Made by a program: the position numbers and the translations under genes. From Clostridiaceae bacterium OM02-2AC (lineage in GTDB: Bacteria > Bacillota_I > Bacilli_A > Erysipelotrichales > Erysipelotrichaceae): DNA of 64,000 bases. Under the pieces are notes generated by a model that saw only the letters and a program-made list of their open reading frames with translations, searched no databases and was not told the origin of the DNA. The stretch spans positions 23,382 to 87,381 of the forward strand of contig QULU01000016.1 of the NCBI GenBank assembly GCA_003481775.1, written 5' to 3'. Every line of letters begins with the position of its first letter. Position 1 is the stretch's first letter. Below are positions 1 to 55,945 of this stretch, one piece after another.

Positions 1-3000
1 ATAATAATTTTGTTAATGACCTCTTGTGAAGCATCCGCTGATAACGGTGAGGATATTTTTTCCTTACTCCAACCGGCAAAGATTGCTCCTTCTCTTTTCA
101 AATTGTCCGGCTTTGCCGCTATTGGAACAGATTCATTGGCAATGTGCGCAGAGGATCCCGGCACATCGCCAGTGCCACCATTACCATCATAACGTACGGT
201 GTAAAGCTTGTTTATCTGAGCGGTAAACATCCTATCCTTCATGATCGGCAATTCTTTGAGCTCCTCGGTACTATATACTTTATTATCGGCATCAGACCAT
301 TGACCATCAAAACGCCAGCCATCTGCTTCTTTAACAGTTGGAATCGTCCCAACCGTATTTTTGTGCCATACCTTTATACTTGCCTTACTGATCGTAGCAT
401 TTTCTGCTTTGAAAGTAATCGTGTGAGGCGCTTGAAGCCCAATCGATAAATTCGTATTCTTTTTGAGATTTTCCTCGTCACAGTTAACAACAATGGTGCC
501 TGTAGCACTCTTGTTGTTGCCGTCTTCTTTAAATATCCCATCTTCCGGCAACGAGAACTTCAAAGGATATGCGCTATTTATATCAGTATTCCCGGGGTTT
601 GTAATTTTCACATGGTAAGTATCAGCTCGGCGTCCGGTAAATTTAAAAGTTCCGTTCTTCGCAGTTGTTTCATGACTTTCTGTATCGTCACTTCCCACTG
701 CATTCTGATGAGGCGCTTCTATCTTTACATCACCTTTGTAAAGCTCGTCCGTATCCTCATCATAAACGCCATTGAAATTCCTGTCTACAAAAATCTTTCC
801 TTCAATGATTCCTGTCTGGAACTCCGCTTGTATATGCGGCAAAGGCATATGTCCACCGTTTTCTTCATTACCTACTGTATACGGCGTATACCCGCAAGGC
901 CCGAAATTAACAACACTCCCCACCAAAGCTGATGTTGCCTTTTCTGCTTCATAATGCAGATAGATTTTTATTTCTGCATTATTTGGTATTTCTGTGACCG
1001 TATCCTTCGCGCTGATACGAAGCATTTTTACTGTAGACCAATCTGATATTTTATCTGCATCTACATAATTATCTTTATTATTATAATAGAGCGGATCACC
1101 TATCGCTGCTTTGGAATCAACCGTTGTACTATACTGCACCTGTAAATCACTTTGAGAGCTTCCTATCATCGTAGCAGGTCCACTCATTTTCATATTAAAT
1201 TCAAACGGCTTGTCCTGAATATGGGTATCCCAGTTGTCCCCCTTCTTGGGTACTGGAATATAATAATAAAAGGCTTTTGCGTCTTCCTCACCAAATGGTC
1301 TGCCGGTTTCGTTTTTGGCAGTAAACCGAAAATCAATGCTATGAGTATCTTCTTTTAAAAACTCAATTTTCTTATCTATCTCATAATTGGCATATCCTTT
1401 ATCGCTGATATCAGCAGAATCACCCTCAGACAGCTTTGCGCCAAAGCCAAAGCTCAGACCAAGACGCGCCGCTACAATTGATAGCTTTGTATCATCAGCA
1501 TTTTTATTAAAGGTACAAAATTTCTCTGTTGTATCCGCATCGCCATCCCAATCATCGGTATCTGACTGTATATATTCACTCTGCGTACCACCGGCCTTAT
1601 CAGATGCCAGAGATGCACTTTTTATTCGCACACAGTTCCGCATATCCAGGGCCATGGCATCCGCAACCTTATCAATTTTCATATCGAAAGACAGACCAAT
1701 CTGATACTGTCCCAGATTCTGCGTAAACCAGCCGACCGGAGCCTTGCCACTCTCAAATGAAATTTTGTACATTCTGTAATCATTCGCGCATTCACTATCA
1801 AGAATAGTATAATCCGTCTTTTCCTGCAATGGAGCACTTTTTACCTTTCCAGTCTCTGGCGTACCATCCCCTAACAGGACGCGGTCGGCCGTACTTCCTT
1901 CCAATCTGGTTAGCTTCAAATTCTCTATCTTAATGGATTTTGGTAACCGGATATAGATTTCCGTATCCATTACCAGCCTATGAATTGAGTACGGATACGC
2001 CGTGGAGGCGATAACACCGTTGAATTGAACTGTCTCTCCGGCAATCGTGGAATGTATATCCAATACTGGAATTTTTTTGCCATTTTCTATTGTATTTATC
2101 AGCGCAAGAGACACCTGATTGCTCTCACTGGCTGAAACAAATTTTGCGTCGAAGGTAGCTGGAACAACAGTTTCATCACGGGTTTGCGTATCGTACATTT
2201 TCATAGTCACAAACGATGGGATATTTTTAGGTTCCGTGGCTTTTTTTAGCTTTCCCAATGTTCCTGCACAAGCGGAAGACGGATCTGCTGTTCGAGACTC
2301 GACATAGCCCATATAGTTAGCATCATAAACACCGACATTTGCGCGTATATTGGTGAAATACTCGTCCTTCTTGAGCCCTGCCATCTCAGCAGTGAACAAA
2401 GCAAAGCCGTTGATACTTGTAAGTGCATGGGAGTATTTCGTTTCTGACGTCTTGTTCGTCGTATACCAAACCTCAATCTGATTCCCACTGGTAGCAGGAA
2501 TTCGCTGTGCAATTACTCCAAGTTCATCCGAGTCCTGATAAATAAATTCCACAGTCTGTGGTTCACTCTCCATTGTCCCTTGGTTAGACACAAGAAACTG
2601 CCCAAGGAAATAGACCATATCCGGCGCTGAATCATAGACGCTGACAATACCTGGTTTCCCAGAGATACCATCGCCTGAGCTTTGTCCCTCCATCCTTATA
2701 TCACTCGCGTTTCCGGCCTCGAATTGATCCAAATTTTCCTTATTAAAATCGTTGTTTAATATATTGACAGTATTCGCAGTCGTTTCATAAAGACCGTCTG
2801 CATAGGTAATCGTTCCACCCACTGCTGTAGGATTAACTGTCCCTATTCCGTCCGCCTTTATAAGTTGAATCTTCGGATTTCTCCACTCAATTTTATCTTC
2901 AGCATCACAAGGCTCTCCATCCTTCCATTGAAAATAAGGCGTGAAATAATCATCCCGGGGAATATACATGTTTTCCCAGATCAAAGTAACAGTATGATTG

Positions 3001-4079
3001 ATATTGTCGATTTTCTCATTAAATTGAAATTTCTGCTCATCCTTGTGATGAACAGGATCCATCCAGTTATCGCCATATTCCTTTGTATCAAAATCTGTCC
3101 GCACATACTCCGCATAGGTGCCCCTTGTACTATTGTACGGCAGCGCGATAGTAACCTCCAGTTTTTGAAAGAACATCCCCATGCTGTAGCGGGTTTTGTC
3201 CGGGCGAAAACGAATCTGCTGCATTTTAAAAGGTGTATTTGCTGCTGCAGGAACTATTCTCTTTGAATCCCAAGAGGTCATAACAGGGCCAGAAGTAAGC
3301 TTGTCACCTGCGATTACAGCTTTTCCGGAAACCTTCTGATATTCTCTTTGTTCATCCCCTTGTCCGGAATAAACACTGACTTCTAATGGATTTTTCATCG
3401 TTGCGCCAAGTTTCTTATTCCAAAGTGTGGTATCCGGTGCCAAAATGATATTGAAGCTGCTATATTCTGCTGTATCACGAAGAGAATAGGTAATCGTACC
3501 GGATTTAGGGCGATAGCTTCCATAGGTGTTATCACTATTCAACTCTTCGATATTTTCTGGTGATACACTCGCTACCAGGCCTGTCATAGAATTTGGTTTT
3601 GGATACTCTACGACGATCAGACCGTCCGGAACGTTTATTTCCACCCTTTTATTCTTTAAATTCAGTGTGCTTTGAACTTTGACATGCAAAGTTACCGACT
3701 TCGTATAATCAATGGTAAAAAAGCCATTTCCTTCTAACAAGGATTGTTCCGTACCTGCATCATCTTTAATTACTGCCGTCGTAATCTGCATTCCCAGATT
3801 TTCTTTTGCCAAAGTCTTTTTCGGCATCTCGGATAACACATTGTCAGCTTTATGCTCTGGTGCTTCTGTTGATGGATCCTCCGTTTGCGATGTCTCGTTC
3901 AGCTTATCCGCGTCTTGTTGCTTGTTTGCATTTGACTCGGGTATCTTCTCCTCAGAAAGAAAAGAGTCCTCTTCCTTGTACTCCTCAGCCAGAACCCCCG
4001 CTATATTTGTAACAGTAATCCCCGTACAGAGGATTGCACATACAAGATTTCTCCCTCGTATCTTCTTCAGACCTCTCAT
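1..4079 (-). CDS. Large secreted cell-surface protein, C-terminus beyond the window edge
   Basis: An uninterrupted minus-strand reading frame begins at ATG 4079 and is still open at base 1, so at least 1359 residues are present and the end is missing. The first ~32 residues form a signal peptide (basic MRGLKKIRGR, hydrophobic core, cleavage near VLAEE). A low-complexity acidic, Ser/Thr/Glu-rich linker follows, then long beta-rich adhesin-like sequence. Around residues 1083-1143 lies an SdrD B-like / prealbumin-type module (starting near EGKIFVDRNFNGVYDEDTD). Near residues 1288-1340 is a Listeria-Bacteroides (InlB B-type) repeat with the YDGNGG...AGWS pattern. These modules are typical of wall-attached adhesins of Firmicutes. 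A sorting signal (LPXTG or other) would lie outside the window, so the anchoring mode is unknown. The ribosome binding site is weak (AAAGTGAGTGATTG). The specific ligand cannot be inferred. Confidence 0.85.
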   Translation of the reverse strand, partial: MRGLKKIRGRNLVCAILCTGITVTNIAGVLAEEYKEEDSFLSEEKIPESNANKQQDADKLNETSQTEDPSTEAPEHKADNVLSEMPKKTLAKENLGMQITTAVIKDDAGTEQSLLEGNGFFTIDYTKSVTLHVKVQSTLNLKNKRVEINVPDGLIVVEYPKPNSMTGLVASVSPENIEELNSDNTYGSYRPKSGTITYSLRDTAEYSSFNIILAPDTTLWNKKLGATMKNPLEVSVYSGQGDEQREYQKVSGKAVIAGDKLTSGPVMTSWDSKRIVPAAANTPFKMQQIRFRPDKTRYSMGMFFQKLEVTIALPYNSTRGTYAEYVRTDFDTKEYGDNWMDPVHHKDEQKFQFNEKIDNINHTVTLIWENMYIPRDDYFTPYFQWKDGEPCDAEDKIEWRNPKIQLIKADGIGTVNPTAVGGTITYADGLYETTANTVNILNNDFNKENLDQFEAGNASDIRMEGQSSGDGISGKPGIVSVYDSAPDMVYFLGQFLVSNQGTMESEPQTVEFIYQDSDELGVIAQRIPATSGNQIEVWYTTNKTSETKYSHALTSINGFALFTAEMAGLKKDEYFTNIRANVGVYDANYMGYVESRTADPSSACAGTLGKLKKATEPKNIPSFVTMKMYDTQTRDETVVPATFDAKFVSASESNQVSLALINTIENGKKIPVLDIHSTIAGETVQFNGVIASTAYPYSIHRLVMDTEIYIRLPKSIKIENLKLTRLEGSTADRVLLGDGTPETGKVKSAPLQEKTDYTILDSECANDYRMYKISFESGKAPVGWFTQNLGQYQIGLSFDMKIDKVADAMALDMRNCVRIKSASLASDKAGGTQSEYIQSDTDDWDGDADTTEKFCTFNKNADDTKLSIVAARLGLSFGFGAKLSEGDSADISDKGYANYEIDKKIEFLKEDTHSIDFRFTAKNETGRPFGEEDAKAFYYYIPVPKKGDNWDTHIQDKPFEFNMKMSGPATMIGSSQSDLQVQYSTTVDSKAAIGDPLYYNNKDNYVDADKISDWSTVKMLRISAKDTVTEIPNNAEIKIYLHYEAEKATSALVGSVVNFGPCGYTPYTVGNEENGGHMPLPHIQAEFQTGIIEGKIFVDRNFNGVYDEDTDELYKGDVKIEAPHQNAVGSDDTESHETTAKNGTFKFTGRRADTYHVKITNPGNTDINSAYPLKFSLPEDGIFKEDGNNKSATGTIVVNCDEENLKKNTNLSIGLQAPHTITFKAENATISKASIKVWHKNTVGTIPTVKEADGWRFDGQWSDADNKVYSTEELKELPIMKDRMFTAQINKLYTVRYDGNGGTGDVPGSSAHIANESVPIAAKPDNLKREGAIFAGWSKEKISSPLSADASQEVINKII

Positions 4080-4289
4080 GATCAATCACTCACTTTCTAA
4101 AACCTAATAATAACCTGATAGTATAATAAGCTTCGTTACTTATATAAAATTCCAAATTCTCAACGAAATCGCTTTTCCATAATCTGCTCAACTTCTAAAA
4201 TATAATATTTCTTGAAGTCTCCACGCTATCCGCTGATTATTTTAAAGGCAAATAGCATAATCAATCGATGATATAAAAGGATGGAATTG

Positions 4290-4302
4290 AAGGTGTCACC
4301 TT
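4290..4302. repeat. 13-base palindrome AAGGTGTCACCTT
   Basis: This is a perfect inverted repeat around a single central T, lying ~210 bases before the surface-protein start. It is too short and lacks a T-run, so it is not a convincing terminator. It could be a protein-binding site. Confidence 0.55.
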
Positions 4303-4318
4303 ATTCTGTTAAGTACAT

Positions 4319-4330
4319 AAGACATGTCTT
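4319..4330. repeat. 12-base palindrome AAGACATGTCTT
   Basis: This perfect palindrome lies four bases beyond the stop codon of the recombinase-like gene. Its centre is ~28 bases from that of the 13-base palindrome at 4290-4302. The two share AAG/CTT ends. A role as an operator pair is inferred. Confidence 0.5.
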
Positions 4331-4334
4331 CCCA

Positions 4335-4775
4335 TTATTTCTTTTGAATATTCTGTTCTGCCTCCTCCATTAGGATTGCATGCTTGATAAGATTTGCATG
4401 CCGATAAAAGGTAGACCTCTTGATGTTCAGTTCTTTTTGGTATTCACTTAATGCCTCCCTGTCAACTAAACGTTTTCTTATTTGTTCCTCAAAGTCATTC
4501 GGCAAATCAATTGATGGCCGTCCATAATTTCCTTTTCCCTCTAATTTTCTTTGCAAAGCCTTCTGGATGCCTCTATGCTGACTTTCCTTCATCTTCTTGC
4601 GGTTCAAATCTATAATATATTCATAAAAGGAAGAAAGTACAGCTGCATCAATGACCATCCCCTGAATGGATAGCTGTATTCCGTTTTTTGCATATTCCCG
4701 CAATTCATTTTCCACCTGTATGACATCCTCTCCCAGAGCGGTGAATGATGTAAGTTTCAAATTTTTATGTTTCAT
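4335..4775 (-). CDS. Serine-recombinase-derived DNA-binding protein lacking the catalytic N-terminus
   Basis: This 146-residue protein aligns by eye with the second half of resolvase/invertase family recombinases. Residues 15-75 follow the pattern of the long E-helix region (ELREYAKNGIQLSIQGM, then IDAAVLSSFYEYI). The GIQKA...GNYGRP hinge follows, and the C-terminus is a Hin-type helix-turn-helix ending in KRSTFYRHANLI. The N-terminal ~65 residues that carry the nucleophilic serine are absent. The position of the conserved DRLGR arginines reads TALGE. It should therefore bind DNA but not cut or rejoin it. It has its own good start (AAGAAAGGA before ATG 4775) and no upstream remnant in another frame within 150 bases, so it is a defined short gene rather than a fresh truncation. 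It lies between the phosphorelay genes and the surface-protein gene on the same strand. A regulatory role is inferred. Confidence 0.7.
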   Translation of the reverse strand: MKHKNLKLTSFTALGEDVIQVENELREYAKNGIQLSIQGMVIDAAVLSSFYEYIIDLNRKKMKESQHRGIQKALQRKLEGKGNYGRPSIDLPNDFEEQIRKRLVDREALSEYQKELNIKRSTFYRHANLIKHAILMEEAEQNIQKK

Positions 4776-4927
4776 CCCAGTATCCTTTCTTATGTTTTAT
4801 ACGTTGCATCTAATTTCCATGCGCTAGTGAGGTCATACGAAATCCAAAACACCACTGCAGGATTTCCATGCATTATATTTTTACAGCACCTAGTAATTCA
4901 CTTCACTAAGCAATGCTATCCCCGTGT

Positions 4928-7480
4928 CTAACTGCTGGTTTCCAAATATTTCTTCAAGAGCCTTGTAAGCACCTGAAGATCGATTGGCTTTGCAATATGG
5001 GCATTCATTCCGCAACGCAGGCATTTTTGAATATCTTCAGAAAAAGCATCTGCTGTCATAGCGATAATAGGTATTGATACAGCAGCTGCATGCTTTGATG
5101 TACGAATCGCCTGTGCAGCCTCATATCCAGTCATATGCGGCATTCTAAGATCCATGAGGATAGCATCATAATATCCAACAGGTGACTTTTCAAACATCTT
5201 TAAACAGCTTCGTCCATCCTCTGCCCACGCAACCTCCATCCCTATATCCATTAGCAATTCTCGTGCAATCTCCGCATTTAATTCATTATCCTCAGCAAGC
5301 AGAATACGGTATCCGGATAGACGCATATCTGTATTCCTATCCTCATCCTTTTTTATTTCCATATCCATATATTGTCTTAGACCATGAAATAATGTTGATT
5401 TGAACAGAGGCTTTGAAATAAACCCAGAGATACTGGCTTCACGCGCTTCTTGTTCAAATTCACTCCAGTCATATGCCGATATCAATATAACAGGCATTTC
5501 ATTTCCTAATCGATGCCGTATCTCTTTTGCCAGCTGAACACCATTCATACCGGGTAGCTTCCAATCCGATAATACTATTTGATAATCGTCTCTGTTTCTG
5601 TTATGCTCAATCAGCAATTCAATGGCAGCTTCCCCGCTCTGCGTCCATTCAGCATGAACTCCCATAGATTTCAAGATACGGATAGTGTTTTTGCCAAACA
5701 GCTCATCATCATCTACAACGAGTATTTTCCATGGAGGAAGAACCATATCATAAGCAGCAGAAGGAGCTTTTTCAAAATCGAGGGCTATATGAACTTCAGT
5801 GCCCTTCTGCAGCTCACTCTGTATATCTATGGTTCCCTGCATGGCATCAACTATATATTTTGTAATCGCCATTCCCAAGCCTGCTCCCTCTGTTTTCTGT
5901 ACTCTTGCATCATCTACCCTGCTATAGGAATCATATATTTTTTTCAAAAAATCAGGAGACATTCCGATTCCATTATCCTTTACACAGATATGTAGCTGCA
6001 CATAGTCTTCTCCCTTTAAAGATTTCTCTTCATATAAAGTTAATTGAATGAATCCCTCCTCCGGCGTGTACTTTACCGCATTTGTTAACAGATTCAACAG
6101 TACCTGATTTAAGCGTACACCATCACACCATACATGCTCTGTCGCTATCGTATCGATTTGTACTTCAAAGCTCTGCTGCTTTGCTTTCACCTGCGGCTGC
6201 ATTATGTTGACAATTCCTTCCACAACCTCTTTCAAAGATACCTGCTCAGAAGACAAGGTCAATTTACCGCTTTCGATTTTCGACATATCTAAAACGTCGT
6301 TGATAAGTCCCAGCAGATGTTTACCGGACAGTGTGATTTTTTTCAAACAGTCCTTCACATGTTCCCGATCATTTATATGATTTTCAGCTATCGCCGTCAT
6401 CCCTACAATTGCATTCATCGGTGTTCGGATATCGTGGCTCATATTTGCTAAAAACTCACTTTTTGCTTGATTTGCCTCCATTGCAAGTCTTCGAGCATGA
6501 TCAAGCTCCTGTACCTGCTGCTGGCTGATATAATAAAAACGAATGAATATAATCAATAAATAACCTATGACAAAGCTACAGGCAAGCATGGTTGCCATCA
6601 TCCTTTGAGACCCTAAAGCATTCATCGTCTCACTTAATATACCGTACGGCATAACTGCAACCAGAATCCATTCAGAGTTTGGTAACGCGGTTCCAAAAAT
6701 CTGCCGGTATTCGCCCTGAACTTCCAACGTTGTTGCATAATTCCCCTGTCTCTTCCATGCCGCTGCAAGACCATACAGCGGATTGTTTTGTTTTGTGCCG
6801 TTTCCCTGATGTAATTGATCAAAATATTTCCATAGCTCCGGATTTTCATTGCGTATTACAAAACTATAGTCAGGACGTATGATATGATAATACAGTATGT
6901 CAGTTGCATCATCCAGTGATAAGAAATCAGTAATATATGCTAACGGTACTGCTGCTATCAAGCCAATTGATTTCTCTTCACTTTCCATCGGATATACAGC
7001 CTTAACACCAAATAAAACTATTTCGCGTCCATTTGCGTCCACTCCTATAGCCACTCGATGTTCCCCCTGCTTTAGCGCTTTTACAAACGGCTCTGGATTC
7101 TTGGGCTGCATTTGTTCTCCATAAAGGGGTTCAATACTTCCCTTATCGGAACAGAGTGCCAGATATTCAAAGTCTCTGATTTGTGCTCTGTAGACCAGCT
7201 CGTTGTACAGATTCTCCTTATTGCTGTTCTTTGTCGTAACAGCGGTAATAATGCCCTCAACCTGACGGAAACGTAAATCTATAACATTCTCAAAATTTTT
7301 TGAAATCTCACGATTCATTCCCGACATATATAGTTCGCCGACCTTATAAATACTTTTATTGCTTTTCTGATCCATAAAAAATACGAGCAGGCCAAAAACA
7401 GCCATGCTGATCAGCAGAAAACCAGTGAAGCTGAATGCTAGAAATCGCATTACATACCGATGTGAGCGCTGCGTTTTCAT
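4928..7480 (-). CDS. Membrane hybrid sensor histidine kinase with two receiver domains
   Basis: The 850-residue protein has a transmembrane segment at ~13-35, an extracytoplasmic sensor region of ~255 residues (Cache-like by layout), and a second transmembrane segment at ~294-317. The HisKA domain carries the phosphorylatable His349 in [10 protein letters not shown]. The HATPase domain has [10 protein letters not shown] and DNGIGM boxes, and two C-terminal receiver domains carry acceptor aspartates in LSDWKLPG and LMDLRMP. It should autophosphorylate and pass phosphate via its receiver(s) to an Hpt protein. Its start overlaps the stop of the Hpt gene by ATGA (7477-7480), so the two are translationally coupled in one operon. 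The signal is unknown. The family assignment is firm; the partner assignment is inferred from the operon. Confidence 0.93.
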
Positions 7481-7845
7481 TTACAAAAATCTCCCAGTCT
7501 CTGATACGCTTTTATGGCAGCTATTTGCTGATCATACAATTTAGAAAGCTGAGGAAGGTGCTTTTCCACGCTTTGATAATCTCCTTCTCTACATGCTTTT
7601 GTAATTTGACTGCTGCATTCATACAGCCTGGTAAACGAAAGATTCTGACAGATTCCCTTTAGCATATGGATAAAGCGAAGGGCCTCATCATAATCTTTGC
7701 GAGCAAAAGCCTCTATGAACATAAAAAAGCTCTTGTCCTCGGAAAATTTCAAAAGGAATTTCGTAACCGTCTTTTCTAAGCGCAGTCTTGTCATCACTTC
7801 CTCATAATCACCGCCAAAAGCAGTATAGCAATCCTTTAAATTCAT
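7477..7845 (-). CDS. Histidine phosphotransfer (Hpt) domain protein
   Basis: This small 122-residue helical protein has the Hpt motif around His60 ([13 protein letters not shown]), matching the family pattern H-x-L-K-G-x(3)-N-L. Hpt proteins shuttle phosphate between receiver domains in multistep relays. The gene overlaps both neighbours by four bases (ATGA at 7842-7845 and 7477-7480), which fits balanced synthesis with the hybrid kinase and the HD-GYP/GGDEF response regulator. The likely route is kinase receiver to His60 to the receiver of the upstream gene product. That direction is inferred. Confidence 0.88.
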
Positions 7846-9497
7846 CGTATGTCTTCCTCTCTTTTATCCGAATCCGCTGTTTCTTCCTTCAAAAGACTCA
7901 CTATCCCCAGATTTTTGTTCGCTTTCGCTTGATACATGAGTTCGTCCGCAGTTATGAAAAGCTCTTCAGCTCCCCCTTTCTCATATACACCGCCAATGCT
8001 CACCGAAACAGTTAGATTTGGATAGTCCGCCAGCGTCATTTCAGATACAGAATTGCGTATCTTTTCTAAGCGTTTGGTGAACAACGCTATCGGCAGATTC
8101 CAAAAGATAATGATGAACTCATCTCCGCCATAACGTATAACAGTGTCTCCTTTTCTAACACTGGAGCATATCAGCTTGGCGATTTTTTGTAAAACGATAT
8201 CTCCGACAAAGTGACCATAGGAATCATTGATAGCCTTGAAATTATCGATATCAATTACGGAGAGATTTTGTATTTCATGAAGAAGAATATAATCTTCATA
8301 ATATCTGCGGTTATATACTCCTGTTAATGCATCTGTATATAATAATTCAAGAGTTTCTTCATAGGTCAGAGTGTTCACAGCATCACGCCTTTTATGCTGT
8401 ATTCCCTTTTTCAACAAGCCCTGCACATTATAGGAATCCGTTTGATCATAGGTAAGATTTAATGCAAGTGTAGTACTTATGTCTATCAGACCTTGTATAA
8501 GCATTGGATTAAACACACCGCATTCTCCATTTACAATCATGTGCAATGCCTTAGTATGTGAATATGCCTTTTTATAGCACCTCTCACTGGTTAGTGCATC
8601 ATATACATCTGCCAGTGCTACCACCTGTGCTGCGATCGGTATCTCTTCTCCCTTCAGCCCATCCGGATAGCCGCTTCCATCATATCGCTCATGGTGCCAG
8701 CGGCAAATTTCAATGGCTACCTTGACAAGCTCGGATTCCCGCTGTTCCGCCGGTAATTCCATTAGCATTTTAGCGCCAATCTCCGTATGCGTCTTCATTA
8801 CCTGAAACTCCTCAGCTGTTAATTGTTCCGGTTTATTTAAAATTGCATCGGGTATCGCGATTTTCCCTATATCATGAAGTGCTGAGGCTATGCTGATGAT
8901 GTCTATATCGGTATCTGTCAGCATATACGAAGTGCTTTGGTGAACAAGGGTTTCCAACAAAAGCCTTGTTATCGTATGAACATGCTGGATATGCGAGCCA
9001 CTTTCACCATTACGAAATTCTACAATATGGGATAGGATAGAAATCATCAGCTTATTATTTTCTTCCTGACTTTGATATTGCTGTGCAATTATTTCTTCGA
9101 GATAATGCTGCCGCGCATATAACAGCATTGTATTCGCTATTCGATGCTGGACAATCGCAGGGTCAAATGGCCGGCTTATATAATCAAATGCCCCGAAGTC
9201 ATATGCCTGTTTTATATTCTCAGGAGAATTGTCCGCAGAGATCATAATAACCGCGAGGTTGGCATTCCAGCTTCTTTTTTTTATAAAAGCCAAAACTTCG
9301 AAACCATCCATTTCCGGCATCATGATATCCAGTAATAAAAGTGAAAATTCCGTTTTGTAGCGAGAAAGAAGAGTTATTGCCTCCACTCCATTTTTTGCTT
9401 CTACAATGTCATACTGGTTCTCAAGGATTTCAATCAGAAGAGCTCTGTTTATTTCTGAATCATCTGCTATAAGAATTTTTTGTTTATTCACATGCAT
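7842..9497 (-). CDS. Response regulator with HD-GYP and GGDEF output domains (c-di-GMP turnover)
   Basis: The domain order in 551 residues is receiver (1-125, acceptor Asp57 in LLLLDIMMPEMDG), HD-GYP phosphodiesterase (~150-350, HDIGK at 209-212 and HHERYDGSGYPDG at 268-280), then GGDEF diguanylate cyclase (~385-535). The GGDEF signature at 457-461 is intact. An RxxD (RKGD, 448-451) sits exactly five residues before it, which is the position of the allosteric product-inhibition I-site. Both opposing c-di-GMP activities therefore look catalytically competent, presumably switched by phosphorylation of the receiver. It is the first gene of the phosphorelay operon and has a strong promoter. The start at ATG 9497 lacks a strong ribosome binding site. 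Confidence 0.92.
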   Translation of the reverse strand: MHVNKQKILIADDSEINRALLIEILENQYDIVEAKNGVEAITLLSRYKTEFSLLLLDIMMPEMDGFEVLAFIKKRSWNANLAVIMISADNSPENIKQAYDFGAFDYISRPFDPAIVQHRIANTMLLYARQHYLEEIIAQQYQSQEENNKLMISILSHIVEFRNGESGSHIQHVHTITRLLLETLVHQSTSYMLTDTDIDIISIASALHDIGKIAIPDAILNKPEQLTAEEFQVMKTHTEIGAKMLMELPAEQRESELVKVAIEICRWHHERYDGSGYPDGLKGEEIPIAAQVVALADVYDALTSERCYKKAYSHTKALHMIVNGECGVFNPMLIQGLIDISTTLALNLTYDQTDSYNVQGLLKKGIQHKRRDAVNTLTYEETLELLYTDALTGVYNRRYYEDYILLHEIQNLSVIDIDNFKAINDSYGHFVGDIVLQKIAKLICSSVRKGDTVIRYGGDEFIIIFWNLPIALFTKRLEKIRNSVSEMTLADYPNLTVSVSIGGVYEKGGAEELFITADELMYQAKANKNLGIVSLLKEETADSDKREEDIR

Positions 9498-9533
9498 CCA
9501 TCGCTTTCATAACAAGGTATACTTCACGATTTT

Positions 9534-9562
9534 ATTATAATTTCAGTTAAACACCCTGACAA
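9534..9562 (-). promoter_or_regulatory. Promoter of the phosphorelay operon
   Basis: On the minus strand, TTGTCA (9562-9557), a 17-base spacer and TATAAT (9539-9534) form a near-consensus sigma-A promoter ~37 bases before the first gene of the operon. Confidence 0.75.
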
Positions 9563-9569
9563 CATCCCG

Positions 9570-9613
9570 ATTGGTAAGGTATACCCATACGTTTTATACA
9601 AAATTGGTAAGGT
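9570..9613. repeat. Two direct repeats ATTGGTAAGGT with 33-base period
   Basis: Identical 11-base units occur at 9570-9580 and 9603-9613, three helical turns apart, between two divergent promoters. The first lies just upstream of the phosphorelay operon -35 box. This is a plausible pair of operator sites, possibly for the adjacent GntR-type regulator. The regulator assignment is inferred. Confidence 0.55.
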
Positions 9614-9638
9614 GAACAAATAGCTTCGCATATGCATA

Positions 9639-9667
9639 CTGACAAACAGAAGGTCGCATACTATAAT
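9639..9667 (+). promoter_or_regulatory. Promoter of the duplicated GntR-type regulator gene
   Basis: CTGACA (9639-9644), a 17-base spacer and TATAAT (9662-9667) lie ~26 bases before the preferred start codon on the plus strand. Confidence 0.75.
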
Positions 9668-9693
9668 GGAAAAAAACCGGAAAGGATATGGGT

Positions 9694-11160
9694 ATGGAAG
9701 CACAAGAAACGAAATTCTCATTTGTCTATCATGAAGTAAAGCAGCGCATCCTTACAAACCAAATACCACCCGGTGATTATATGCCCTCCTCAAGAATACT
9801 CTGTCATCAATTCAATGTGAGTCGTTATACCATCAATCGCGTCTTTGATGCACTGCAAAAGGAGGGATATATTGAAATAAAACCTCGCATCGCTCCTATC
9901 GTATTACCGCGAGAAGCCGTAATAAAGCAGGGGACGGAAGGTATTGACATTTTGCGAAGTCGTGATAACATTCTACAGTTATATCAGACATTCGCCTTAA
10001 TACTTCCCTCCTTGTTAAGCTTTGCAGCAAAGCACTGTGATCTGGAAATCCTGTATCATTACAAAAAAGCTATAAAGGTCTCCCGTATGGGGATTTCCGC
10101 CGGAGGGTGGCGTCCTGTATCAAATCTGTTAAAAGAAATTCTGACAGTTGGAGGAAGTCCCTTGCTGGGAAACCTTTATTCTGTCTTTGAACTACATTCT
10201 CATTTAAGCTTTTTCACAGAAAACAGTACCTTTTTTCTGAAAGTCTTACGAAAGGATTCCATCCCCATAACAGCAAATCTTATCAGTATCCTGAAAGAAA
10301 AGGATACACATGTTATGTATACTCAGCTGACTCATCTTCTTCACAAATTTGTATATGCTGTTCAAGAAACTCTGCAGCATCTGGCAGATACATTGGAGAC
10401 TTATCCCCTGCAGAGCCCTGCTGCCTTTTCATGGAGACCAACGCGCGGCAAGGATTATTTCTATACTCGCATCGTCAGTGATCTGAACCGCAGAATAGGC
10501 CGCGGTGATTATCCGCGTGGCACTTTTCTCCCCAGTGAAAAGCAATTGGCTGCAATCTATAATGTTTCTGTTTCCACAATACGAAAAGCACTGACAGAAC
10601 TTTCACAACGAGGCTTTGTCAAAACGATAAATGGAAAAGGTACAATGATTATAACCCCGGATGATACCCGTGTAAGGCAGATTCTTCCCAATCCGGGACG
10701 AACAGAGGAGGCATTGCGGTACTTGCATGCTTTGCAATTACTGGCATTGATCATGCATCCTGCAACGGTTAATGCTGCCGCAAAATTCAAGAAAAAGGAG
10801 CTGAAGAGTTTAGAGGAAAAGCTCTATCTTCCGGATTCTATCTGTATTATAGATATATTTGAAGCTATTTTATACCATACGGATGCACAACCCCTGAAAA
10901 GCATACTGGAAGAGGCCTTTCGCCTCACAGAATGGGGGCATTATATTGCTTATTACGATCATAAAAAGCAGGTATTGCAGACAGTTAATAAAGGTCTGCG
11001 CTTAGCAGTACATGAGTTGCATACAGGAGACTACATAGAATTTGCTAATCGAATTGCTGATTGCTATTACCACATATTTCAGCATGCCAGAGACATCATG
11101 ACAAACAAATACGGATTTTCTTCCGCTGCATCCATCCAGTTACCGGAGAAGTATTATTGA
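9694..11160 (+). CDS. GntR-family regulator with tandemly duplicated winged-helix and helical modules
   Basis: The start is set at ATG 9694, because AAAGGA (9681-9686) is seven bases away there and only one base from ATG 9688. The protein has ~488 residues and two GntR-type winged helices. One is at ~8-73 (PPGDYMPSSR...VSRYTINRVFDALQKEGYI), the other at ~253-323 (YPRGTFLPSEKQLA...VSVSTIRKALTELSQRGF). Each is followed by ~170 mostly helical residues that share a similar LQ-L/ALI pattern at their beginning. The chain thus looks like two DNA-binding-plus-effector units in one polypeptide. The helical parts match no effector domain that I recognise. It is transcribed divergently from the c-di-GMP phosphorelay operon, so it may regulate that operon and itself. 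Confidence 0.85.
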   Translation: MEAQETKFSFVYHEVKQRILTNQIPPGDYMPSSRILCHQFNVSRYTINRVFDALQKEGYIEIKPRIAPIVLPREAVIKQGTEGIDILRSRDNILQLYQTFALILPSLLSFAAKHCDLEILYHYKKAIKVSRMGISAGGWRPVSNLLKEILTVGGSPLLGNLYSVFELHSHLSFFTENSTFFLKVLRKDSIPITANLISILKEKDTHVMYTQLTHLLHKFVYAVQETLQHLADTLETYPLQSPAAFSWRPTRGKDYFYTRIVSDLNRRIGRGDYPRGTFLPSEKQLAAIYNVSVSTIRKALTELSQRGFVKTINGKGTMIITPDDTRVRQILPNPGRTEEALRYLHALQLLALIMHPATVNAAAKFKKKELKSLEEKLYLPDSICIIDIFEAILYHTDAQPLKSILEEAFRLTEWGHYIAYYDHKKQVLQTVNKGLRLAVHELHTGDYIEFANRIADCYYHIFQHARDIMTNKYGFSSAASIQLPEKYY

Positions 11161-11494: not shown

Positions 11495-12277
11495 CTATTT
11501 ATCGTTCAGCTTTGCAATCAGTGCAGGCAATTCACGTATATCCTGCACGACATAATCGGCTCCTGCCTGTATATACTCCTTGCGCAGGCGTGCACATAGC
11601 GCTTCCTTTTCCTGTGCGCTGAGTGCCTCGTACTCCGTTTGCGTCAGTCCCATCAGGGAGCTTCCCTCCAGAATTCCAACAGAGATCACACCTGCCGCAA
11701 CGCCTTCCTTAATATCAGAGATTGTATCCCCTACCTTAACGGCTGCGTGTACATCACGGATATGCAGCTGCTTCAGGTTCTCAAAAATCATATACGGGTA
11801 TGGTCTTCCATAGTTATCCACGCTGTTCGGTGAAATCCAGAAATCCGGAGCATAGCCCTTTTCCTTTGCGACACGCGTTACAACCGTCATCATCTGATCG
11901 GTATAGCCGGTGGTAGAGCCAATCGCCAGTCCCATAGCCCGCAGCCTTGCAATCGTTTCCACGACATAGGGCTTCGGGTCGGCAAACTGATCCAGTATGC
12001 TCATCAACTTTTCCGTAAAGGTATCATGCATTGCATCGATATCCGCTTCCGTTACTGCACGGCCATGTGCGCTTTTCCACAATCCCTCAATTCTCGGCAT
12101 TTCCAGCATGGTCTTGATGTGATCACGCTTCAGCATCCCCATCGGCTTTCTCGTTTCCTCCATCGTAACCTCCATGCCAAACGCATGAAATACCTCCACA
12201 AATGCCTGTACCGGTGCAAAGCAGCCGTAATCTACCGTCGTTCCTGCCCAGTCAAATATAATTCCCTCTATTTTCAT
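11495..12277 (-). CDS. phnX: Phosphonoacetaldehyde hydrolase
   Basis: This HAD-superfamily enzyme of 260 residues (usual ~265) splits phosphonoacetaldehyde to acetaldehyde and phosphate. The nucleophilic aspartate is Asp9 in IIFDWAGTTVDYG, a phrase diagnostic for PhnX. The Schiff-base lysine of the cap domain is expected at Lys50 in KPMGMLKRDH. The late motif KVGDTISDIKEG binds metal and phosphate. The start codon lies one base after the phnW stop, so the two are coupled. It performs the last step of the 2-aminoethylphosphonate pathway encoded by this operon. Confidence 0.95.
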   Translation of the reverse strand: MKIEGIIFDWAGTTVDYGCFAPVQAFVEVFHAFGMEVTMEETRKPMGMLKRDHIKTMLEMPRIEGLWKSAHGRAVTEADIDAMHDTFTEKLMSILDQFADPKPYVVETIARLRAMGLAIGSTTGYTDQMMTVVTRVAKEKGYAPDFWISPNSVDNYGRPYPYMIFENLKQLHIRDVHAAVKVGDTISDIKEGVAAGVISVGILEGSSLMGLTQTEYEALSAQEKEALCARLRKEYIQAGADYVVQDIRELPALIAKLNDK

Positions 12278-12278
12278 A

Positions 12279-13373
12279 TCAGTTTCCTCTGCTTTCCATA
12301 TACTCTTTCATAATCTGTGCCAGCCGCAGGATATCCTCCTCATAAATCTCACCAATCGTTCCGATGCGGAAGGTATCCTTATCCGTCAGCTTTCCCGGAT
12401 AAATCGCATAGCCTCGCTCCTTGATAAAGCGATACATCTGTGCGAAATCAAAATCTGTTTCCGGATACAGGAAGGTTGTGATGATTGGACCCTGTACCGC
12501 CTTTTCCACATAAGGATGGAAGCCAAGCTTGCCGAATTCCTCAATCAATACATCACGATTATGTGCATAGCGTTTACTTCTTGCAGGAATACCGCCTTCC
12601 TTTTGCAGCTCCTCCATCGCCTTGGCAAATGCCAGAACAACATGCGTAGGAGAGGTATAGCGCCATTTTCCATCCTTCTCCATGCCGGCCCACTGATCGT
12701 ACAGGTCCAAGGACAGGCTGCGTGCACAGCCTTTAGAAGCGACCAACAGCTCTCTTCTTGCGATGATAAAGGAGAAGCCTGGAACCCCCTGAATACACTT
12801 ATTGGCTGAGCTTACCAGAAAATCGATGTGCCAGTCATGCATCGGAATATCCACACCGGCAAAGCTTGACATCGCATCCACGATAAAGACCTTATGATAC
12901 GTCTTTGCCAGCTCGCCAATGGATTGAATATCATTGAGAATGCCGGTTGTCGTTTCACTGTGAATCATTGCGATATGCGTAATTTCCGGATGCTGCTGCA
13001 GCGCTTCCTCTGCTTTCATCCGATCCGGTATTTTATCATAATCCTGTGCAATATGAACGCAGTTAATGTGATGATAGCGACACATTGCGGCGATTCGTTC
13101 CCCATAAGCGCCATTGCTGAGCAGCAGCAGACAGCCATCTTCAGGAATCACACTGGAAATCACACTTTCCACACCGAAGGTGCCGGAGCCCTGCATCAGT
13201 ACGGTTGTATATGCAGTCTCATCGACATGTGCCAGCTGCAGCAGCTCTCTTCGGATCCGCTGCGTAATCTGCTTATAATCCTCATCCCATGTACAGTGGT
13301 CAAACAGCATCTCCTGCTTTACACTGTCTGTTGTCGTCAGTGGTCCCGGTGTTAATAGCTTGTATGTTTTCAT
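12279..13373 (-). CDS. phnW: 2-aminoethylphosphonate--pyruvate transaminase
   Basis: This PLP enzyme of fold type I (364 residues from ATG 13373) converts 2-aminoethylphosphonate and pyruvate to phosphonoacetaldehyde and alanine. The N-terminus KLLTPGPLTTT and the PLP lysine in SSANKCIQG (Lys192 from this start) are characteristic. A TTG at 13406 would add 11 residues, but AAGGAGAG seven bases before ATG 13373 supports the shorter form. It lies 13 bases after the transporter fusion gene and one base before phnX. The operon context confirms the substrate. Confidence 0.95.
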   Translation of the reverse strand: MKTYKLLTPGPLTTTDSVKQEMLFDHCTWDEDYKQITQRIRRELLQLAHVDETAYTTVLMQGSGTFGVESVISSVIPEDGCLLLLSNGAYGERIAAMCRYHHINCVHIAQDYDKIPDRMKAEEALQQHPEITHIAMIHSETTTGILNDIQSIGELAKTYHKVFIVDAMSSFAGVDIPMHDWHIDFLVSSANKCIQGVPGFSFIIARRELLVASKGCARSLSLDLYDQWAGMEKDGKWRYTSPTHVVLAFAKAMEELQKEGGIPARSKRYAHNRDVLIEEFGKLGFHPYVEKAVQGPIITTFLYPETDFDFAQMYRFIKERGYAIYPGKLTDKDTFRIGTIGEIYEEDILRLAQIMKEYMESRGN

Positions 13374-13386
13374 TTGTCTTCTCTCC

Positions 13387-15993
13387 TTATTTTCTACAGC
13401 CTTCAAAGAATGCCTGATGCTCTTCTAAAAGCTCTACACTCAATGCTCTCTTAAATACCCGCGGATATTTACTTGCATATTTTTTCTCCACCTGTTCGCC
13501 TTCATAAAGTGCAGTTGGATAGGTATACAGAATATCTCTTCTCCCATTTTCCATAATGCAGCGTGCCATAGCCATTGCCGTCTTATTCACGTTTTCCTTT
13601 TTTACAACGGCAATGCTTTCCGTAAGGGAATAATTGCCTTCAATCGGATCAATACAGTCGATAGGAAGTCCCTTTTCCTTATCCGCAAGGGCCTGATGCC
13701 GCAGCCCGAAGGCAATGCCGACCTCTCCGGAGCGTACCTTTTTCAAAGGACCTGAGCCACTGGATTCCAGATGCGGACCGACATTATCAAGGATTGCGGT
13801 TAGGATTTCTTTGCCCTCCGCTTCCCCATAAGTATCCAGCAATGCCTGTACGAGTAGCCAGCCGGTACTGCTTGCCTTGATATCAGGTATTGAAATCATT
13901 CCCTTATATTTCGGATTCGCAAGCTCCTTCAGGGAGACTGGCACCGGCAGCTGCTTTTCCTTCAGTACGCTGGTATTCACAATCATCGCTCCCTCCAATG
14001 CCGTCAGCGGAGTATCGTAATCGGAATAGGTTTTCAGTGTCGGTGTCGGAAAGGTCAGCTTATCAAACATATCGTTTTTTTGCTGGGCACTGTCTATATA
14101 ATAGGAGCTCATCGTGATAATATCCGCTTCCAGATTCTTACCTTCCGCCATGATTTTTCCACCAAGCTCACTCGTTCCAAACGATTGCAGGACATATTGA
14201 TCCTGAAAGCCGTTTTCATCCAGTGCATGCTGTATCGCCACCAGTGCTTCCTCATCCGCATTGGAGTAAATTACTACAGGCTCCTTTCCCTGTCCGAATA
14301 CGAAGGTGAACAGCACAACACCGCCGGCAAGAATGCCAAGTGCATATTTCTTCATACGGACACTTCTTGCTTTCTTCTCCTCCTTCTTCTGTGTAACGAA
14401 GAGAATGATTCCCTTTACCAGCAGATTTGTCAGAAGGATCAGTAGAGACAGAACGAAAATCTGATCGAATTTCGCAAAATGCTGCAGCTCCTTGATCTTG
14501 GTTGTCAGCACTGCTGTTTTTGCGCCAACAATGAAAATCAGGGCAGAAATCGTCACCATGGAATTGATGAAATAATAGCTGAACATCTCCAGTATCGTGC
14601 TTTTGGAATTGGGAATAACCACTCTTCGTATCGTTTTGAACCAGCTGTCCCCCATCAGCATTGCCGTAGTTTCATAGGAGGTATTCAGCTTTCCCAGTGT
14701 GTTCTTCGCCATCACATACGGGGTGGAGAAGAAATGAATCATATTACAGAGAATGATGATCCAGAAGGTGTTTTGCAGCGGTGTGCCGCTGAATGCGAAC
14801 AGGAAGGCAATACCGATGACCATTCCCGGTATGGTATTGGCTATACTGCTGATGGCATCAATACTTTTTCTGCACAGTACAGGAAGCGTGCTGCGTGTCG
14901 TCACAAGAGCCGAGCCATACGCGACCAGTGTTCCACAAGCCGCTGTGCCCAGGGATACAATGAGTGAATTGCGGTAAACCGACAATAAGTTGGCACTGGC
15001 CAGCGTATCTGTGAAATGCTGCAGGGAAAAGCTGATATCATACGGCCATTCCTTTACAAACGGCAGCAGGATGATAACTGTAAATACAAGCAGAATACTG
15101 CATAGGATAAGACCTGAGCCAAGACCGCACCACAAATCACGCCCCTTGTTTTCCGGCAGCTCAATGCTGCTGATTTTATTGTAGCGAACATTATAGCGTT
15201 CCAGATAGTTCAGAAGAACGATACTGATGATGGAAGGAAGCAGCATCATCATGGCGACAACCGCACCGTTGCTGAAGTTCGGGATGGAGCCGAGCATTTC
15301 ATTGTACAGCGTGGTTGCGACAACCGCAAACTCGCCACCAACGGCCGCCGGGATACCAAAGTCGGTAAAGCTCAGAAAGAATGCCTGAAGAAAGGCTGCC
15401 GCAAGGGTTGGAATCATCGGTGACAGGGCGGTCATCCAGAAGCGCTTCCCTCCGGAATCCCCCATGATTTTTGAAACGATAATAAATTTCTTATCAATGA
15501 ATTTCATCGTATTGTTCACAAGCAAAAAGGCAATCGGCAGCGTATAGATCACATAACCGATCAGAAGACCGTTGAAGCCGTATATATCAAACAGCTGCAC
15601 ATGCAGCAGCTTACTCAGCAGTCCCTGCTTTCCGAATGTATATATAATGGCAAAGCCATAGGTGATCGTAGGCAGGAGCATCGGCAGAGTGGCAATACTG
15701 CGGATTCCCTTCTTCAGCCTCTGCGATATATTGGTATAATTGATGGTGTAGGCCATAAGAAAGGCAAGCAGTGTTGTCACCAGGGCACTGATGCCGGATA
15801 CGGTGAAGCTGTTGGCAAAGGCGTTCACAAATTTGTCGCTGAAGATCAAATCACGATAATGCTGCAGTGTCAGCGAGGCTCCGCTTTCAAAGGATTTATA
15901 CAGTAGAATGGCGACCGGCATAAAGAGAAATACGAGAAACAAAACTGCCAGAACCACATAGATTCCCTTTAGCTCCAGCTGCTTTTTATGCAT
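13387..15993 (-). CDS. 2-aminoethylphosphonate ABC transporter, permease fused to substrate-binding protein
   Basis: One 868-residue chain combines two functions. Residues ~1-540 are a double-length permease (about 12 membrane segments) with two EAA-type loops, one around MGDSGGKRFW and one around MGDSWFKTIRR. Residues ~547-868 are a family-1 periplasmic-type binding domain that starts with its own membrane segment (MKKYALGILAGG) and continues EPVVIYSNADEEALVA. Separate genes are the norm for this transporter class, so the fusion is notable. The start is ATG 15993 with GGAG six bases upstream, overlapping the ATPase stop by eight bases; the TTG at 16005 is less likely. Substrate specificity comes from co-transcription with phnW and phnX. 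A GGAGG stretch lies 23 bases before the internal Met, probably too far to drive separate translation. Confidence 0.88.
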   Translation of the reverse strand: MHKKQLELKGIYVVLAVLFLVFLFMPVAILLYKSFESGASLTLQHYRDLIFSDKFVNAFANSFTVSGISALVTTLLAFLMAYTINYTNISQRLKKGIRSIATLPMLLPTITYGFAIIYTFGKQGLLSKLLHVQLFDIYGFNGLLIGYVIYTLPIAFLLVNNTMKFIDKKFIIVSKIMGDSGGKRFWMTALSPMIPTLAAAFLQAFFLSFTDFGIPAAVGGEFAVVATTLYNEMLGSIPNFSNGAVVAMMMLLPSIISIVLLNYLERYNVRYNKISSIELPENKGRDLWCGLGSGLILCSILLVFTVIILLPFVKEWPYDISFSLQHFTDTLASANLLSVYRNSLIVSLGTAACGTLVAYGSALVTTRSTLPVLCRKSIDAISSIANTIPGMVIGIAFLFAFSGTPLQNTFWIIILCNMIHFFSTPYVMAKNTLGKLNTSYETTAMLMGDSWFKTIRRVVIPNSKSTILEMFSYYFINSMVTISALIFIVGAKTAVLTTKIKELQHFAKFDQIFVLSLLILLTNLLVKGIILFVTQKKEEKKARSVRMKKYALGILAGGVVLFTFVFGQGKEPVVIYSNADEEALVAIQHALDENGFQDQYVLQSFGTSELGGKIMAEGKNLEADIITMSSYYIDSAQQKNDMFDKLTFPTPTLKTYSDYDTPLTALEGAMIVNTSVLKEKQLPVPVSLKELANPKYKGMISIPDIKASSTGWLLVQALLDTYGEAEGKEILTAILDNVGPHLESSGSGPLKKVRSGEVGIAFGLRHQALADKEKGLPIDCIDPIEGNYSLTESIAVVKKENVNKTAMAMARCIMENGRRDILYTYPTALYEGEQVEKKYASKYPRVFKRALSVELLEEHQAFFEGCRK

Positions 15994-16738
15994 ATGTTTC
16001 TCCAAACAGCGTAAAGATATTATTGCGTTTGATCTCCAGCTGGTTCAGGATGAATTCCTTCACAAAGCTGTTTTGCGGATGCTCGATGATATCCTTTGGC
16101 TTCGCATACTGGGAAATGCTGCCATCCTTCATGATCAGCACGCGGTCAGATAAGGTCAGCGCCTCCTCCGGATCGTGGGTGACAATGATCGTTGTCAGGT
16201 GAAATTCCTTGGCGATCGTTTTGATCTTCTCCTTGATGCTTTCCTTGATGACACCATCCAGCGCACTCAGCGGCTCATCGAGCAATAAAATTTTCGGTTT
16301 CATGACCATGGTTCTGGCTAGTGCCACACGCTGCTTCTGGCCGCCGGACAGCTGGTCGATGTGCTTATCCAGATGCTGAGAAAGCCCCAGCAGCTCAATC
16401 AGCTCATTCACCTCCTGCTGTGTGGAAATACCGGGCTTATTCTTCAGACCATAGGTGATATTTTCATAGGCGTTCAGATTCGGAAACAGGGCATAGTCCT
16501 GAAATACGATATTGAAGCCGCGCTCCTCCATGGATACTCCGGTGACATCCTGTCCGTTGAATACCACACTCCCGCTGTCAATGTCTGTAATGCCCAGTAT
16601 ACAATTCAGCAGGGTTGTTTTTCCGCTTCCGCTCGGTCCCAGAATGGAAACGATTTCCCCGGTCTCTATCGATAGACTGATTCCGTTGAGAATCGATGTC
16701 TGATCATACGATTTCTTCAGATTATTCAGTGTCAGCAT
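15986..16738 (-). CDS. 2-aminoethylphosphonate ABC transporter ATP-binding protein
   Basis: This 250-residue ABC ATPase has Walker A GPSGSGKTT, signature LSGGQKQRVALA, Walker B ILLLDEPLSALD and the switch histidine in IVTHDPEEAL. It resembles the PotA/FbpC/PhnT group that drives double-permease importers. GGAGAG precedes the start. It is the first gene of the phosphonate operon and overlaps the permease fusion gene by eight bases. The assignment to aminoethylphosphonate rests on the downstream phnW and phnX. Confidence 0.92.
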   Translation of the reverse strand: MLTLNNLKKSYDQTSILNGISLSIETGEIVSILGPSGSGKTTLLNCILGITDIDSGSVVFNGQDVTGVSMEERGFNIVFQDYALFPNLNAYENITYGLKNKPGISTQQEVNELIELLGLSQHLDKHIDQLSGGQKQRVALARTMVMKPKILLLDEPLSALDGVIKESIKEKIKTIAKEFHLTTIIVTHDPEEALTLSDRVLIMKDGSISQYAKPKDIIEHPQNSFVKEFILNQLEIKRNNIFTLFGETYA

Positions 16739-55806: not shown

Positions 55807-55840
55807 TAAGTGAACCAATCTAATACTCAAGATAGATATG

Positions 55841-55908
55841 ACTCCCTACGCTAGCATTAACTAGATCAGGTCATAAGGGACTGTCTCAGCCTTACGGCAC
55901 CCCTGTCA
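55841..55908 (-). promoter_or_regulatory. TPP (THI-box) riboswitch aptamer
   Basis: All conserved segments are readable on the minus strand: GGGGTGC (55903-55897), CTGAGA (55889-55884), CCTGATC (55870-55864), TAATGC, and GCGTAGGGA (55851-55843). These define the THI element, which binds thiamin pyrophosphate and switches off downstream genes. The sequence CTTACG at the foot of the terminator (55810-55805) is complementary to CGTAAG inside the aptamer (55896-55891), a possible antiterminator pairing. Confidence 0.96.
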
Positions 55909-55945
55909 TGACAGTATCATTATACACGCATCGTGTAAAAAAGAA

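What the first reader, a model, noticed from the sequence alone, without database searches (positions are those of the whole stretch)
1..9693. Candidate c-di-GMP signalling island feeding a giant surface protein
A hybrid kinase, a stand-alone Hpt protein and a receiver protein carrying both HD-GYP and GGDEF form one ATGA-coupled operon. It is followed on the same strand by a catalytically dead recombinase derivative and then a very large secreted adhesin-like protein. A regulator divergent from the operon completes the set. The sequence shows the genes and order; c-di-GMP control of adhesins is established elsewhere. The link through a recombinase-like DNA-binding protein is inference and, as far as I know, not described.
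Basis: partly seen in the sequence, partly recalled or inferred. Interest (0 to 1): 0.75.

Follow-up and report, generated by a model that had tools for sequence, protein, structure and literature searches.

The report
c-di-GMP relay beside dead-recombinase adhesin locus
A gut bacterium carries a conserved four-gene set that tunes an internal signal molecule, next to an inactive DNA-cutting enzyme and a giant surface protein; the parts are real, but relatives give no sign that the signal set drives the surface protein.

Summary
In detail: hybrid kinase, Hpt and REC-HD-GYP-GGDEF genes overlap by ATGA, followed by a 146-aa recombinase derivative and a giant surface protein, with a divergent GntR regulator.

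The conserved unit is a different four-gene set: a tandem-GntR regulator divergent from the relay. It recurs in Subdoligranulum (54-62% identity) with a conserved intergenic box, without small protein or adhesin. GntR relatives face c-di-GMP enzymes in 6 of 9 loci, the window included. In 12 other relay loci neither small protein nor adhesin was seen (8 by BLASTP, 4 by annotation). The adhesin matched in 1 of 272 family genomes, about 600 kb from that genome's relay.

The small protein belongs to an apparently undescribed, narrow family of serine-recombinase derivatives that lost the catalytic residues but kept the DNA-binding end. Two relatives sit inside capsule operons. Three palindromes lie between it and the adhesin.

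Best reading: two neighbouring modules, a GntR-controlled c-di-GMP relay and a surface gene with its own dead-recombinase DNA-binding protein. How either works is inferred.

The parts
9688..11160 (+). tandem-GntR regulator (two GntR winged-helix domains), divergent from the relay
   Evidence: PF00392, 2 stretches; relatives
9498..9687 (.). 190-bp shared control region; 50-bp box 35/50 identical to Subdoligranulum L133; CTTACCAAT twice; CTGACA-17-TATAAT promoter-like site towards GntR and TTGTCA-17-TATAAT towards RR
   Evidence: 1 of 2000 dinucleotide shuffles reaches the score
7842..9497 (-). response regulator REC-HD-GYP-GGDEF, all motifs and RxxD I-site intact
7477..7845 (-). stand-alone Hpt protein (HxxKG intact)
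4928..7480 (-). hybrid histidine kinase HisKA-HATPase-REC-REC; two strong hydropathy peaks (near residues 18 and 295) enclose a region without Pfam hit, probably the sensor
4335..4775 (-). 146-aa catalytically dead serine-recombinase derivative: begins after the catalytic N-terminal part, keeps long helix, GRP motif and HTH
4290..4330 (.). two perfect palindromes (AAGGTGTCACCTT 4290-4302, AAGACATGTCTT 4319-4330); with the AT-only one at 4198-4210 three in the 255-bp gap before the adhesin; candidate operators
   Evidence: 3 in 255 bp against 0.18 at the window's rate; 7 of 2000 mononucleotide shuffles reach 3
3..4079 (-). 5' part of a giant sortase-anchored surface protein (ATG at 4079; gene runs off the window; about 2205 aa in close homologues)

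Best explanation
Two neighbouring modules. Module A (9688-11160 and 4928-9497) is a self-contained c-di-GMP relay: the membrane hybrid kinase passes phosphate through its receivers and the Hpt protein to the receiver of the HD-GYP/GGDEF protein, setting c-di-GMP breakdown against synthesis, while the divergent tandem-GntR protein binds the shared intergenic box and sets expression of itself and of the relay. Module B (3-4775) is a surface gene, a large sortase-anchored protein, with its own small DNA-binding protein, a serine-recombinase derivative that lost catalysis and most likely binds the palindromic region before the adhesin gene and regulates it. Shown: genes, motifs, overlaps, conservation of A in Subdoligranulum, the dead-recombinase family, the palindromes. 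Inferred: direction of phosphate flow, GntR binding, the small protein's target and effect. Any coupling of A to B, through c-di-GMP or read-through, is unproven.
For: Module A: motifs; same four-gene divergent set in L133 at GntR 54%, RR 62%, Hpt 56%, HK 61%, with a conserved 50-bp non-coding box, 35/50; RR-Hpt-HK together also in L001 and in L002, where RR lacks the GGDEF part, and in G386/L169; GntR relatives divergent from GGDEF, EAL or HD-GYP genes in 6 of 9 loci, window included, while GGDEF domain matches number 21-34 in four genomes of 2.9-3.9 Mb. Module B: of 67 family rows R8 is kept in 1, S10 in 2, R68 in 1, R71 in 1, while GRP is kept in all 62 rows with letters there; of 57 active-like rows R8 and S10 are kept in 56, R68, R71 and GRP in 57; AlphaFold model pLDDT 87.5, and the five PDB chains at E<=0.001 are Sin, gamma-delta/Hin and Tn3 resolvase; two relatives sit inside capsule operons between a CpsD-like and an LCP gene, with gaps of 15 and -4 bp (L115) and 15 and 9 bp (L117); palindromes.
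Confidence: 0.6

Rival explanations
1. One reading: one functional island in which the relay, through c-di-GMP or through transcription into the small gene, controls the adhesin by way of the recombinase-like protein.
For: All five genes on one strand in order; no terminator-like site between HK and small gene and no promoter-like site on that strand in that gap; c-di-GMP control of surface proteins is established elsewhere (recalled); relay genes lie near surface-type genes in two other loci (flagellin-like gene after HK in L002, read by eye; polysaccharide genes around the Hpt-HD pair in L174).
Against: Order absent in the relatives examined; no c-di-GMP riboswitch; gaps of 152 and 255 bp, with two weak promoter-like sites between small gene and adhesin.
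Confidence: 0.2
2. The small protein is a decaying fragment of an old resolvase with no function, and module B is just an adhesin gene.
For: Lacks the whole catalytic N-terminal part, with no remnant seen upstream; several shortened variants exist (P0003-P0008).
Against: One 90% cluster with a 146-aa representative of 97% identity stands for 301 member sequences (P0001; member lengths not shown); a group of relatives of mostly 165-200 aa keeps the DNA-binding end while the catalytic residues are gone in nearly all rows; relatives are embedded in operons.
Confidence: 0.2
3. The small protein is an architectural or accessory factor for site-specific inversion or phase variation of surface loci by an active recombinase elsewhere.
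For: Active-like serine recombinases exist in the relatives (L119-L121); surface loci are common inversion targets (recalled); one exact 15-bp inverted repeat near a capsule operon (L188) exceeds all of 30 shuffles.
Against: The longest exact inverted repeats in the window's first 16 kb, in 3900-5000, and in L115, L117 and L189 are within shuffles; weak repeats only.
Confidence: 0.1

Closest known systems
Two-component/phosphorelay c-di-GMP modules (PleD-type receivers, Borrelia Hk1-Rrp1, receiver-HD-GYP regulators; recalled; PMC4013479 seen in search listing and start of abstract only)
   Same: kinase to receiver-borne c-di-GMP enzyme
   Different: separate Hpt, both HD-GYP and GGDEF on one receiver protein, and a divergent tandem-GntR regulator
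Serine resolvases/invertases (PF00239; Sin 2r0q, gamma-delta 1gdt, Tn3 5cy1)
   Same: fold of the retained part, GRP motif and C-terminal HTH
   Different: no catalytic serine or arginines, N-terminal part missing, a deletion before the long helix
GntR family regulators (PF00392)
   Same: GntR winged-helix domain above cut-off
   Different: two copies in one chain with otherwise unassigned regions; recurrent divergence from c-di-GMP enzymes
Gram-positive sortase-anchored repeat surface proteins (List-Bact repeat PF09479 and DUF7601 above cut-off; SdrD-B-like below cut-off)
   Same: repeats, VPETG tail
   Different: ordinary member as far as seen; adhesion itself not shown

Membership tests
c-di-GMP phosphorelay | kinase H-box and ATPase, receiver Asp, Hpt His | tested here: met
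c-di-GMP phosphorelay | intact HD-GYP and GGDEF signatures | tested here: met
c-di-GMP phosphorelay | phosphotransfer and c-di-GMP turnover measured | not testable with these tools
   needs biochemistry
Catalytically active serine recombinase | catalytic serine and arginines (S10, R8, R68, R71) | tested here: not met
   absent in the window protein
Serine-recombinase superfamily (by descent) | homology of retained part and DNA-binding domain | tested here: met
   (to L115, which passes the PF00239 cut-off)
GntR family | GntR winged-helix domain above curated cut-off | tested here: met
   two stretches
Sortase-anchored surface protein | signal peptide and LPXTG-like tail | tested here: met
   on P0121 (99% identical over the window's part): VPETG tail, outside the window; signal peptide by eye only
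Conserved relay-adhesin island | same gene order in relatives | tested here: not met
   and, by annotation, 30, 66-68; same-species genomes not available

The most novel reading that the evidence does not exclude
Two undescribed regulator families meet here: tandem-GntR proteins that are dedicated regulators (perhaps receptors) of c-di-GMP systems across gut Firmicutes, and a clade of dead serine recombinases turned into transcription regulators of capsule and adhesin loci; in this species the first sets the second to work on a giant surface protein.
Probability: 0.12. Interest if true: 0.78.

Novelty: new variant of a known kind. Interest (0 to 1): 0.5.

Why it matters
A recombinase clade that gave up cutting DNA but kept binding it, found inside capsule operons and before an adhesin, would be a new route from mobile-element enzyme to surface-gene regulator. 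A GntR type that recurs beside c-di-GMP enzymes would offer a handle on c-di-GMP control in gut Erysipelotrichaceae; for the species I guess, [Clostridium] innocuum, the held library gave no paper with both names.

Tried and rejected
c-di-GMP riboswitch before the adhesin: none; the only Rfam match in 3900-10000 at E<=5 was a chance-level one inside HK. Invertible promoter: longest exact inverted repeats within shuffles in five of six stretches; in L188 (upstream of one G303 capsule operon) a 15-bp pair beat 30 of 30 shuffles and is left open. Remnant of the missing recombinase N-terminus in the HK-small gap: none seen in three frames. GntR box reused before small gene or adhesin: alignment scores within shuffles, CTTACCAAT absent even with one mismatch. 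Dead family on viral contigs: none confirmed; on phage records two weak matches; on plasmid records 45 weak matches, 18 of the 20 listed annotated as recombinase family protein. Scan of genome contigs with the small protein: 51 pattern matches, no confirmed relative. Clostridia search with the GntR profile: 1 of 148 genomes, two fragments near the starts of their contigs, neighbours not examined. Profile search of 272 family genomes for the dead type returned, above 78 bits, only the four loci that were rows of the profile itself, so it added no new member. Of 9 family genomes with a strong RR match I read neighbours in two (G334, G386). Papers: searches gave listings with starts of abstracts only; no paper was opened. 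They gave no description of a tandem GntR (0 papers) or of a dead serine recombinase as regulator, in the held open-licence library only.

Full report
Observation. The window's left end encodes, on the minus strand, RR-HD-GYP-GGDEF (7842-9497), Hpt (7477-7845), a hybrid kinase (4928-7480), a 146-aa protein (4335-4775) and the start of a giant secreted protein (from ATG 4079, off the window), with a GntR regulator (9688-11160) divergent on the plus strand. The relay genes overlap by ATGA twice, and the signature residues are intact, including the product-inhibition RxxD site five residues before GGDEF. Gaps are 190 bp (RR-GntR), 152 bp (HK-small) and 255 bp (small-adhesin). So the description is correct, but only the three relay genes are tightly coupled.

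Whose genome. No genome is held for the window. RpoA is 93% identical to G200, the best of 296 genomes drawn from a larger class; the named relatives of the small protein's group come from [Eubacterium] hominis and Amedibacterium. This fits Erysipelotrichaceae; the species ([Clostridium] innocuum is my guess) is recalled, not tested.

The relay is a unit of its own. RR, Hpt and HK lie together at 61/55/63% identity in L001 and 63/51/60% in L002, where RR matches only to residue 381. Further relay loci are G386 (L169, three genes together), G334 (L168, a related set with other ORFs between), G269 (L170, Hpt-HK), L003 (RR-HK) and L004 (Hpt-RR), and annotated plasmid records from C. difficile, Collinsella and two from Monoglobus. 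In a Subdoligranulum variabile record (L133) the RR, Hpt and HK genes (62/56/61%) face a GntR of 54% identity, as in the window. The two intergenic regions share a 50-bp stretch with 35 identities; 1 of 2000 dinucleotide shuffles reaches its score. Both carry CTGACA-17-TATAAT towards GntR (read by eye; for the window). In these 12 loci neither the small protein nor the adhesin was seen: 8 by BLASTP of ORFs, 4 by annotation only. In the 80 genome-contig loci, most of them distant, only RR, Hpt and HK matched. Flanks differ in length. Two loci lie beside surface-type genes: a flagellin-like gene follows HK in L002 and polysaccharide genes surround the Hpt-HD pair in L174; L175 has a large hypothetical protein nearby.

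The regulator recurs with c-di-GMP enzymes. Relatives with two GntR domains were found in 3 plasmid records and at 5 places in 4 of 266 family genomes. With the window that makes 9 loci. The divergent neighbour is a REC-HD-GYP-GGDEF (window, L133) or a GGDEF-EAL protein (L171, L181, L182, L183) in 6 of 9; a hybrid kinase in L184; a tyrosine recombinase followed by a large surface-type protein and a sortase in L172; in L185 the upstream gene runs the same way and is not of this kind. L182 and L183 look like the same locus in related genomes, and window and L133 are alike, so about 4 of 7 are independent. GGDEF domain matches number 21 to 34 in four genomes of 2.9-3.9 Mb, roughly 1% of genes if one gene per kb is assumed, so this is far above chance. 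A further search in Clostridia gave 1 of 148 genomes with two unexamined fragments. I found no paper on such a regulator.

The adhesin. Fifteen homologues of 96-99% are 2194-2211 aa; P0121 ends in a VPETG sorting signal. The search returned 299 proteins, 120 listed; relatives of 43-62% identity are many, but most are unnamed (two names seen: Dysosmobacter and Collinsella). In 272 family genomes only G386 matches at E<=1e-60, in two frames, with at most two candidates scored per genome in the rows shown. It lies about 600 kb from that genome's relay. The 255-bp gap before the window's adhesin holds three palindromes with arms of 6, against 0.18 expected at the window's own rate; 7 of 2000 mononucleotide shuffles reach three. 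No Rfam element is there.

Mechanism. I favour two neighbouring modules: a GntR-controlled c-di-GMP relay, and a surface gene with its own DNA-binding dead recombinase. Phosphate flow, GntR binding and the action of the small protein are inferred from anatomy. It remains open within the species.

Novelty. The relay is a new variant of a known kind. The dead-recombinase clade and the c-di-GMP-associated tandem GntR appear undescribed within the searches made, and are the part worth following.

Checking. On re-reading the calls I corrected the box identity (35, not 36, of 50), the distance in G386 (about 600 kb), the capsule gap lengths, and added a shuffle control for inverted repeats.

Noticed in passing
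window 3-4079; P0137, P0139, P0142, P0145-P0159: 18 listed close variants of the adhesin (98-100% identical over the shared part) are shorter and lack 266 to about 800 N-terminal residues (starts read for ten of them); some lie on contigs over 100 kb. Could be strain variation, on/off switching or sequencing error.
   Followed up: partly
L115 4757-5065 and 3623-4735: LCP gene of one G303 capsule operon is split into two frames while its twin in L117 is one frame.
   Followed up: no
P0009: Protein joining the start of a glutamyl-tRNA synthetase to the C-terminal half of the small protein; probably an assembly chimaera.
   Followed up: no
L172 2435-10467: A tandem-GntR relative faces a tyrosine recombinase, followed by a 1402-aa surface-type protein and a sortase: a different recombinase in a similar position.
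   Followed up: partly
L188 869-883 and 3068-3082: Exact 15-bp inverted repeat upstream of one G303 capsule operon, longer than in 30 of 30 shuffles.
   Followed up: no
window 11495-16738: Phosphonate-type genes (phosphonatase-like, aminotransferase-like, ABC transporter with fused permease and binding protein) beyond the GntR gene; names by eye.
   Followed up: no
window 55826-55914: TPP riboswitch before what looks by eye like a thiamine-precursor ABC transporter.
   Followed up: no
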